Below the pieces are notes generated by a model that did not search any database, was not told the origin of the DNA, and saw only the letters and a program-made list of their open reading frames with translations. From Leptospiraceae bacterium (GTDB lineage Bacteria > Spirochaetota > Leptospiria > Leptospirales > Leptospiraceae), in NCBI GenBank assembly GCA_022402465.1, contig JAKRSH010000024.1, forward strand, positions 124,001-188,000: 64,000 nucleotides of DNA. Direction: 5' to 3'. How positions within the stretch are numbered: the first letter of the stretch is position 1; the number at the start of each line of letters is the position of its first letter. Position numbers and translations under genes: made by a program. Of the stretch, positions 44,868-47,098 are shown piece after piece.

Positions 44868-44936
44868 TATCTTATTTTGGTAGGCAATTCTGACATAGGT
44901 TTAAACATTGAAATAGATCAGGAGAACTACACAAAA

Positions 44937-45341
44937 ATGAAGAAAATCAACCTTTTTTCAATCACTATCTTACTTTCCCTATTTATAGTATCTTGTGGTG
45001 ATAAACCAGCTCCCGCTGAAGAAACTGCTGCTCCCGAAGTAGCTGCTTCCACTGGACTAGATGCTGATTTACAAGCTGGTAAGGAAGCTTATGAGATGAC
45101 TTGTGCTTCATGCCATGGAGAGAAAGGAGATGCGAATACCCCAACCGCTGCTGCTTTAAATCCTAAGCCAAGAAATTACAAAGCCCCTGCTTCTGAATGG
45201 AAAAATGGAAATACAGTTGCTGGCGTAACAAAAACATTAAAAGAAGGAATCAAAGGTTCTACTATGGTCTCTTATGCACATTTAGGCGACGAAACTATTG
45301 GCCAAATTGCACAGTACGTAGTATATTTATCTAAGAATTAG
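44937..45341 (+). CDS. Lipoprotein monohaem cytochrome c
   Basis: 134 residues from the ATG at 44937, preceded by CAGGAG; an earlier in-frame ATG at 44877 would place 20 polar residues before the signal. The signal ends FIVSC (lipobox, Cys 20), followed by an Ala/Pro/Glu-rich linker and one haem site C56-A-S-C59-H60. The axial methionine is probably the one in KGSTMVSYAHL. It is a small c-type electron carrier held to a membrane by lipid, on the periplasmic side. Redox partners are unknown. Confidence 0.9.
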   Translation: MKKINLFSITILLSLFIVSCGDKPAPAEETAAPEVAASTGLDADLQAGKEAYEMTCASCHGEKGDANTPTAAALNPKPRNYKAPASEWKNGNTVAGVTKTLKEGIKGSTMVSYAHLGDETIGQIAQYVVYLSKN

Positions 45342-45456: not shown

Positions 45457-45801
45457 ATGGCTGAGGATTTTAAAATAAAAATAGAGTTTGAAGAAGGTGG
45501 TGCTACCCCTGTTCTTCATATTTCTGGTGAAATCACATCCGAGGCAGATGATGAGATCATGTCTTCTTATTCTTCCATCCCAGATAACAAGAAATCACGT
45601 GTCATTTTAAATTTCTCAGATACTAGTTACATAAACTCTGCAGGAATAGCCACCCTTATAAGTTTGATTACAAAAGCTTCTGAGAATTCAGGTAAAATTG
45701 AATTTGCTGGTCTTAATGCTCATTTCAGAAAGGTAATGGACATTGTTGGATTAACTGATTTTGTCATTATTCATGACAATTTAAAACAAGCTCTAAAATA
45801 G
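45457..45801 (+). CDS. STAS-domain anti-sigma factor antagonist-like protein
   Basis: A 114-residue single STAS domain. Core motif: VILNFSDTSYINSAGIATLI, where S (in NSAGI) is the phosphorylatable serine of SpoIIAA/RsbV-type antagonists. No other domain. A TAGGAGAAC ribosome-binding site is 10 bases before the ATG. It is seven bases upstream of the citrate-synthase homologue, so the two are made together; no RsbW-type kinase or sigma factor is adjacent. Confidence 0.9.
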   Translation: MAEDFKIKIEFEEGGATPVLHISGEITSEADDEIMSSYSSIPDNKKSRVILNFSDTSYINSAGIATLISLITKASENSGKIEFAGLNAHFRKVMDIVGLTDFVIIHDNLKQALK

Positions 45802-45808
45802 AAATACA

Positions 45809-47098
45809 ATGAATTATAAAAAAGCTGAACTTCTGATAGATGGGAAGAATTTCGAACTTCCTATAATCACAGGAACTGATGGAAGACAGGGTATAGATAT
45901 TTCTTCCCTCTACAAATCTACAGGCCTTGTAAGTCTCGATCCTGGATTATTTAATACCGCAATAGGACATTCAAAGGTTTCCCGCAGAGTACCAGAAAAA
46001 GGCGAACTTTTCTATAGGGGCTACGATATAGAAGAGTTAGTATTTAATTCTACCTTTGTGGAAACTTCTTACCTTCTCATTTATGGGGATCTTCCCAATA
46101 AACAAGAGTTAGAGGATTTCTCAAAGCGCCTATCCAAGCATTCTATGATTCATGAGGATATGTTGAATCTATTTGATGGATTTCCTGGAAAGGCAAATCC
46201 CCTGGCGGCTCTTTCTGTTATGGTAACATCTTTATCAAGTTATTACCCAGACGATTATGAAGAGAATTTGGACAAGGGAGTCGACCAAGTAACAAGGCTA
46301 CTTGCCAAGATACGAACAATCGCAGCCTTCACACACAGACACAGTGAAGGACATCCCTTCGTATATCCATTGGATAAACTTCCTTATTGTACAAACTTTT
46401 TGCATATGCTTCATTCAATTCCAGCTGAGGGTATTTATACTGTCCCAGATGAATTTGAGAAATTATTAAATAAGCTTTGGATTTTGTATGCAGACCATGA
46501 GCAGAATGTTTCTGTCACTACAGTTCAAATCATAGGTTCTACTAAGGCGAATCTTTTTGCATCTATTGCAGCTGGAATTGCTGCACAGTGGGGATCCCGA
46601 GAAGGTGGAAGACCCGTTGCCGCTGTTGAGCTACTGGAAGATATACAGAGATCAAAGTTAGATGCTGTTTCATATTTTGAAAGATTCAAATCTGGCGAAA
46701 AGGAATTGCATTCCAATGGCTTTGGACAGAAGGCTTACGACACCATTAGTCCTCGTGCTCGTGTTGCCAGGAAGGTATTTTTAGATTTTTATAAAAACCG
46801 AAAGCTTGATGCCATCGAAGAACTTGCTATGCAGGTTGATAATTTTATCTGGAAGGATGATTACTTCGTTTCAAAAATGCTTTACCCAAATCTAGAATTC
46901 TATAGTGGAATCATGTTCCATACTTTAGGCATTCCTAAGGAACTTTTTACCTCTATGCAAGTGATCGGAAGACTACCAGGTTGGATGGCACATTGGAGAG
47001 AGCTTCGAAAGAAAGGTGAGAGTTCTAAAGTTAGACCAAGGCAGATTTATGTAGGTGAGAATTCTAGAAAATATATACCGATTTCTAGCAGGGTGTAG
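45809..47098 (+). CDS. Citrate synthase homologue with altered catalytic residues
   Basis: A 429-residue protein with the full-length citrate synthase fold and the family's later arginine motifs (IGRLPGWMAHW, RPRQIYVG). Against E. coli GltA numbering, His229 is kept (H230 in ADHEQN), but the catalytic His264 is E265 (WGSREGGR instead of WGPxHGGAN), the His305 of GFGHR is Q307 (GFGQK), and Asp362 is E363 (YPNLEFYSGI). The first two changes in particular argue against ordinary citrate formation. It could bind acetyl-CoA or act as a regulator, perhaps with the STAS protein seven bases upstream. An active canonical paralogue elsewhere in the genome is expected but not seen here. Confidence 0.9.
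   Translation: MNYKKAELLIDGKNFELPIITGTDGRQGIDISSLYKSTGLVSLDPGLFNTAIGHSKVSRRVPEKGELFYRGYDIEELVFNSTFVETSYLLIYGDLPNKQELEDFSKRLSKHSMIHEDMLNLFDGFPGKANPLAALSVMVTSLSSYYPDDYEENLDKGVDQVTRLLAKIRTIAAFTHRHSEGHPFVYPLDKLPYCTNFLHMLHSIPAEGIYTVPDEFEKLLNKLWILYADHEQNVSVTTVQIIGSTKANLFASIAAGIAAQWGSREGGRPVAAVELLEDIQRSKLDAVSYFERFKSGEKELHSNGFGQKAYDTISPRARVARKVFLDFYKNRKLDAIEELAMQVDNFIWKDDYFVSKMLYPNLEFYSGIMFHTLGIPKELFTSMQVIGRLPGWMAHWRELRKKGESSKVRPRQIYVGENSRKYIPISSRV

What the first reader, a model, noticed from the sequence alone, without database searches (positions are those of the whole stretch)
45809..47098. Citrate-synthase homologue with the catalytic triad changed, coupled to a STAS protein
The chain is full length and keeps H230 (E. 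coli His229) and the late arginine motifs, but the position of E. coli His264 is Glu (E265 in WGSREGGR), His305 is Gln (Q307 in GFGQK) and Asp362 is Glu (E363 in YPNLEFYSGI). These three residues do the enolisation and condensation chemistry in known enzymes. The gene starts seven bases after a STAS anti-sigma-antagonist-like gene. This suggests a citrate-synthase fold used for something else, such as acetyl-CoA sensing, or an enzyme with a new mechanism.
Basis: partly seen in the sequence, partly recalled or inferred. Interest (0 to 1): 0.7.

Follow-up and report, generated by a model that had tools for sequence, protein, structure and literature searches.

The report
Non-catalytic-looking citrate synthase relative in Leptospirales
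One order of spirochaetes carries, beside its normal citrate synthase, a second copy whose key catalytic histidine has become glutamate in every member examined and which in many species sits in one operon with a membrane sensor kinase, so it probably carries signals rather than making citrate.

Summary
The 429-residue protein at 45809-47098 (+) is a full-length citrate synthase homologue with Glu, Gln and Glu at E. coli His264, His305 and Asp362, and it starts 7 nt after a STAS gene. It is not an isolated oddity. It belongs to one monophyletic paralogue clade found in 28 of 30 genomes of its order and in none of 363 other Spirochaetota. All 19 high-quality genomes of the order also have a normal (His264) citrate synthase. 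In the clade Glu replaces His264 in 27/27 sequences, while His305 is usually kept (25/27) and Asp362 is Asp or Glu; the full E/Q/E triad is unique to the window. The oxaloacetate-site residues His229, Arg314 and Arg407 are kept 27/27, but the small, CoA-binding domain has lost most of the residues that never vary in normal enzymes. dN/dS is 0.01-0.07. The STAS neighbour is found only in the window. In ten genomes (seven genera) of the sister family the gene is last in an operon RsgA - 7TMR-DISM histidine kinase - degenerate 7TMR-DISM protein; the degenerate protein shares its phyletic range. Best reading: a regulatory pseudo-citrate synthase working with that kinase. Its biochemistry is untested.

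The parts
45809..47098 (+). citrate synthase-like paralogue (E264-type), 429 aa
   Evidence: PF00285 343.5 bits; below the cut-offs of all NCBIfam citrate synthase equivalogs; clade of 27 sequences
46496..46498 (+). codon of H230 (E. coli His229), kept 27/27 in the clade
46601..46603 (+). codon of E265 (E. coli His264); Glu in 27/27 clade members, His in 110/110 canonical enzymes
46604..46927 (+). small (CoA-binding) domain, residues 266-373, where the canonical residues are preferentially lost
   Evidence: domain limits transferred from PMC6386500
46727..46729 (+). codon of Q307 (E. coli His305); His in 25/27, Gln only here, Asn in one
46895..46897 (+). codon of E363 (E. coli Asp362); Asp 16, Glu 11 in the clade
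45457..45801 (+). STAS (anti-sigma-antagonist-like) protein, 114 aa, 7 nt upstream; neighbour in this genome only
   Evidence: PF01740 1.9e-14, TIGR00377 50.5 bits, just under its 53.45 cut-off; no tblastn match in other clade loci
44877..45341 (+). cytochrome c-type protein upstream, 154 aa; no sign that it belongs to the system
   Evidence: PF00034 8.8e-11; not conserved beside the paralogue

Best explanation
It is a regulatory pseudo-citrate synthase: a paralogue that was present in the ancestor of this spirochaete order, gave up citrate synthesis, and now acts in signal transduction with a conserved membrane kinase pair (a 7TMR-DISM histidine kinase and a degenerate 7TMR-DISM partner). Shown: the fold family, the invariant His264-to-Glu change, preserved oxaloacetate-site residues, eroded CoA-domain residues, strong purifying selection, a canonical citrate synthase gene in the same genomes, the operon with the kinase pair in most of the sister family, and the shared phyletic range with the degenerate partner. 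Inferred: that it has no citrate synthase activity; that the kept pocket binds a di- or tricarboxylate (oxaloacetate, citrate or similar) and closes on it; and that this closure is read by the kinase pair, reporting the state of the TCA cycle. In the window's own family the kinase pair lies elsewhere in the genome, so the link there would act in trans. The STAS protein may be a lineage-specific added link or a chance neighbour.
For: E265 in 27/27 clade members against His in 110/110 canonical enzymes; H230, R316, R409 27/27; R388 to Lys in 26/27; F384 to Arg/Gln 27/27. Canonical-invariant residues kept: 12/45 in the CoA-binding small domain against 60/98 elsewhere, Fisher p 1.4e-4; the small domain is the most variable part of the clade (45% mean identity) but the most conserved part of the canonical copies of the same order (78%). 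Clade monophyletic, SH-aLRT 100, with the two families as separate sub-clades, consistent with vertical descent. dN/dS 0.013-0.071. Canonical His264 copy in 19/19 high-quality genomes of the order. Operon RsgA / 7TMR-DISM kinase / degenerate 7TMR-DISM / paralogue: gap of 15-48 nt in 10 genomes of 7 genera, usually with a 4-nt overlap between the two receptor genes. The degenerate 7TMR-DISM protein is found in 7/8 window-family and 16/17 sister-family genomes searched, and in 1/18 genomes of other families of the class, at a marginal E of 9.8e-4. Precedent: Caulobacter CitA controls the cell cycle even when the His equivalent to this Q307 is mutated and activity is lost (PMC7083601); the citrate synthase homology domain of ATP citrate lyase has an allosteric role (PMC10115795).
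Against: No biochemical data. One genome (G003) has the paralogue without the degenerate receptor, G010 keeps only RsgA beside it, and in G004, G006, G017-G019 the genes are apart. In the window's own family the paralogue and the kinase pair are never adjacent in the genomes seen. Position 265 is always Glu, and H307 and D/E363 are mostly kept, which is more than a binding-only pseudoenzyme needs and could mean a new reaction. Genomic linkage and shared range do not prove physical interaction.
Confidence: 0.5

Rival explanations
1. An enzyme with changed chemistry: Glu at 264, together with Asp/Glu 362 and usually His305, does a different reaction on an oxo- or hydroxy-acid (different acyl donor, a lyase, decarboxylase or tautomerase reaction), independent of normal acetyl-CoA use.
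For: Glu at 265 is invariant, not merely lost; H307 kept in 25/27, D/E363 always acidic, three substrate-site residues kept 27/27; strong purifying selection.
Against: Two sequences have lost H307 (Gln in the window, Asn in L012) with the gene still intact; the usual genomic partners are signalling proteins, not metabolic enzymes; no conserved metabolic gene accompanies it in the window's family.
Confidence: 0.23
2. A regulatory subunit of the canonical citrate synthase: it forms mixed dimers or hexamers with GltA and changes its activity or allostery; each active site takes Arg407 from the neighbouring subunit.
For: Same fold and full length, C-terminal Arg (R409) kept 27/27, a canonical copy in every high-quality genome of the order.
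Against: Only about 41-46% identical to the canonical copies of the order, 46% in the own genome; does not by itself explain the operon with the kinase pair.
Confidence: 0.12
3. A low-activity or back-up citrate synthase (or 2-methylcitrate synthase), with Glu standing in for the histidine.
For: PF00285 full length, 343.5 bits; substrate arginines kept.
Against: Scores below all NCBIfam citrate and methylcitrate synthase cut-offs; both catalytic histidines gone in the window; substitution of the His305 equivalent in Caulobacter CitA abolished complementation of an E. coli gltA mutant (PMC7083601); no PrpD-family gene in the genome; CoA-site residues lost.
Confidence: 0.07
4. Acetyl-CoA sensor that signals through the adjacent STAS protein.
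For: STAS gene 7 nt upstream, same strand.
Against: The STAS neighbour occurs in no other clade locus; the CoA domain is the eroded part.
Confidence: 0.05

Closest known systems
Bacterial hexameric-type citrate synthase GltA (TIGR01798 / PRK05614; E. coli, Hymenobacter 7e8n, A. aceti 2h12)
   Same: Full-length fold, best sequence and structure matches, His229, Arg314, Arg387, Arg407 equivalents
   Different: His264 to Glu, His305 to Gln, Asp362 to Glu; CoA-loop residues lost; below family cut-offs
Caulobacter crescentus CitA, a citrate synthase that controls the cell cycle independently of its activity (PMC7083601)
   Same: A citrate synthase paralogue with a regulatory role; the regulatory role survives loss of the His equivalent to Q307
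   Different: CitA is still a working enzyme with its triad; no operon with a 7TMR-DISM kinase reported in the passages read
Citrate synthase homology domain of ATP citrate lyase (PMC10115795)
   Same: Citrate-synthase fold used allosterically rather than for its own chemistry
   Different: A domain of a larger enzyme that binds CoA and keeps the essential Asp
7TMR-DISM sensor histidine kinases (PF07695 + PF02518)
   Same: The conserved operon partner is of this kind
   Different: The window protein itself is not a kinase; a citrate-synthase-like accessory of such a kinase was not found in the literature searched

Membership tests
Citrate synthase (EC 2.3.3.16) | Citrate synthase fold over the full length | tested here: met
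   PF00285 1-357/357; AlphaFold2 mean pLDDT 86.9, pTM 0.89, the 50 best PDB matches shown are all citrate synthases, TM up to 0.85
Citrate synthase (EC 2.3.3.16) | Catalytic His264, His305, Asp362 | tested here: not met
   Glu, Gln, Glu
Citrate synthase (EC 2.3.3.16) | Oxaloacetate-site residues His229, Arg314, Arg387, Arg407 | tested here: met
   H230, R316, R388, R409; R388 is Lys in the other 26 clade members
Citrate synthase (EC 2.3.3.16) | Conserved CoA-binding small domain | tested here: not met
   12/45 canonical-invariant positions kept by the clade
Citrate synthase (EC 2.3.3.16) | Curated score of a citrate synthase equivalog | tested here: not met
   PRK05614 432.5 against 505; TIGR01798 374.4 against 485.15
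Citrate synthase (EC 2.3.3.16) | Enzyme activity | not testable with these tools
   needs purified protein
2-methylcitrate synthase (PrpC) | Family score and methylcitrate pathway in the genome | tested here: not met
   TIGR01800 258 against 421.3; no PrpD-family match in the genome
Regulatory citrate synthase paralogue (CitA-like role) | Regulatory function independent of enzyme activity | not testable with these tools
   needs mutants; genomic context is consistent
Regulatory citrate synthase paralogue (CitA-like role) | Separate citrate synthase with intact catalytic residues in the same genome | tested here: met
   canonical-motif copy in the own genome and in 19/19 high-quality genomes of the order; its activity was not tested
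STAS-linked regulatory system | Conserved neighbourhood with a STAS gene | tested here: not met
   found in the window only

The most novel reading that the evidence does not exclude
A previously undescribed signalling module of Leptospirales in which a catalytically dead citrate synthase is the cytoplasmic metabolite-binding subunit of a 7TMR-DISM receptor kinase and its pseudokinase partner, coupling oxaloacetate or citrate level to gene control; Glu264 would have been selected as part of the new ligand site or conformational switch.
Probability: 0.33. Interest if true: 0.82.

Novelty: new variant of a known kind. Interest (0 to 1): 0.6.

Why it matters
Databases would call this gene a citrate synthase, and metabolic models of these spirochaetes would count it as one. 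If it is a sensor subunit, it gives a direct example of a TCA-cycle enzyme turned into a dedicated signalling part in one operon with a receptor kinase, and a testable link between central metabolism and two-component signalling. It also offers a natural series (E/H/D, E/H/E, E/N/D, E/Q/E) in which the steps of losing citrate synthase chemistry can be followed.

Tried and rejected
STAS linkage as the conserved context: rejected, no STAS beside any other clade member. 2-methylcitrate synthase: rejected, family score and absence of PrpD. Pseudogene: rejected, full-length ORF and dN/dS 0.01-0.07 (synonymous sites are near saturation in several pairs, so these values are rough). Horizontal import into this one genome: rejected, the tree follows the two families. 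Recent copy of the own canonical gene: rejected, 46% identity and a separate, fully supported clade. RNA element in the window: no Rfam family reached threshold. Plasmid records: 239 with citrate synthase-like matches, all under 60% identity, their triads not checked. Literature for a citrate synthase pseudoenzyme or for the Leptospira copies: no description of this paralogue found, but the library is partial. A search centred on another phylum failed for technical reasons; 28 genomes outside the window's class were used instead, 0 matches. The AlphaFold2 model was used only for the fold: Foldseek reports rmsd of 9-13 A beside TM 0.8, so the relative domain placement and active-site geometry were not interpreted.

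Full report
Observation. The gene at 45809-47098 (+) encodes a full-length citrate synthase homologue of 429 residues. Aligned with solved citrate synthases, it has Glu265, Gln307 and Glu363 at the positions of E. coli His264, His305 and Asp362, and keeps His230, Arg316, Arg388 and Arg409 (E. coli His229, Arg314, Arg387, Arg407). The start codon lies 7 nt after a STAS gene. The E. coli numbers and the roles of these residues are from established knowledge of the family.

Second copy. The same genome has a canonical copy with His, His, His, Asp on contig 25, so the window gene is not the only citrate synthase. Three aconitase-family genes are present and no PrpD-family gene.

Distribution. A DNA pattern joining the D/E-H-E-x-N motif to W-G-x-x-Glu at fixed spacing finds the Glu264 type in 28 of 30 genomes of the window's order and in 0 of 363 other Spirochaetota; the two misses, G007 and G021, are 67% and 77% complete. 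The same pattern ending in His finds a canonical copy in 25 of 30, including all 19 high-quality genomes. In 28 genomes from other phyla the Glu pattern is absent. Organism names are withheld; neighbouring records are labelled Leptospiraceae and Leptospirales, so the order is taken to be Leptospirales by inference. No record of the genus Leptospira itself was returned.

The clade. In 27 full-length sequences Glu265 is invariant; canonical enzymes have His in 110/110. Position 307 is His in 25, Gln in the window, Asn in one. Position 363 is Asp in 16 and Glu in 11. Arg388 is Lys in 26, and Phe384 is Arg or Gln in all. H230, R316 and R409 are invariant. The clade is monophyletic (SH-aLRT 100) with the two families as separate sub-clades, so it dates at least from the ancestor of the order; its root among canonical enzymes is uncertain because of its long stem. 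It is less conserved than the canonical copy in every one of the genome pairs compared (56% against 76% mean identity) but is under strong purifying selection (dN/dS 0.013-0.071).

Which half changed. The small domain of citrate synthase begins just after the His264 position and forms the acetyl-CoA pocket (PMC6386500). Of positions that are at least 95% invariant in canonical enzymes, the clade keeps 12 of 45 in that domain and 60 of 98 elsewhere (Fisher p 1.4e-4; sites are treated as independent). The residues after His305 in the loop GFGHRVYK, the GGANQ segment and the basic residues at 308, 311 and 356 vary freely. This speaks for loss of CoA binding and retention of a carboxylate pocket, and against an acetyl-CoA sensor. 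It is an inference from sequence, not a binding result.

Partners. No STAS gene is found next to any other clade member. In the sister family the gene typically follows RsgA, a 7TMR-DISM histidine kinase (HATPase_c plus 7TMR-DISM_7TM) and a second 7TMR-DISM-like protein in which no kinase ATPase domain is detected. The gap to the paralogue is 15-48 nt in ten genomes of seven genera, and the two receptor genes usually overlap by 4 nt; an eleventh genome (G001) has one extra gene between. In the window's family the kinase pair also exists but elsewhere: in the window's own genome directly behind fliF-fliG-fliH, in two others behind polyphosphate kinase. The degenerate receptor is found in 7 of 8 and 16 of 17 genomes searched of the two families and, apart from one marginal match (E 9.8e-4), in none of 18 genomes of the other families of the class, the same range as the paralogue. 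Exceptions are G003 (paralogue without the receptor) and G010 (RsgA only at the locus).

Reading. The evidence is best explained by a citrate synthase paralogue recruited into signalling with this kinase pair. Precedents exist for regulatory use of the fold: Caulobacter CitA controls the G1-S transition even when its His303, the equivalent of Q307 here, is mutated and activity lost (PMC7083601), and the citrate synthase homology domain of ATP citrate lyase is allosteric (PMC10115795). What differs here is a dedicated, lineage-wide loss of His264 and an operon with a receptor kinase. The main rival is an enzyme with new chemistry, because Glu265 is invariant rather than merely lost. Neither has been tested at the bench.

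Limits. Linkage and shared distribution are correlational; the clade is a single evolutionary event, so counts of sequences are not independent; the AlphaFold2 model supports the fold only.

Noticed in passing
L222:1070-8677 (G000:C20, window's own genome, outside the window): The 7TMR-DISM kinase and its degenerate partner lie directly behind fliF, fliG and fliH with 4-nt overlaps, as if part of the flagellar operon.
   Followed up: partly
L224:6773-12702 and L225:2798-8663: In two relatives the same kinase pair follows polyphosphate kinase 1.
   Followed up: partly
L148:4295-6226, L222:6650-8677: A second 7TMR-DISM-like protein with no detectable kinase domain is translationally coupled to the kinase across the order; it looks like a pseudokinase partner.
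   Followed up: partly
L173-L188 (G035-G047 and others): A neighbouring family of the class carries up to three or four citrate synthase-like matches per genome, including short types; L188 has the unusual motif LFPNADYPIALL around the catalytic Asp.
   Followed up: no
G000: C9, C42 and C36: Three aconitase-family genes in the window's genome.
   Followed up: no
L012 / L232:6985-8313 (G010): A second independent loss of the His305 equivalent (Asn), in a genome where only RsgA remains beside the gene.
   Followed up: partly
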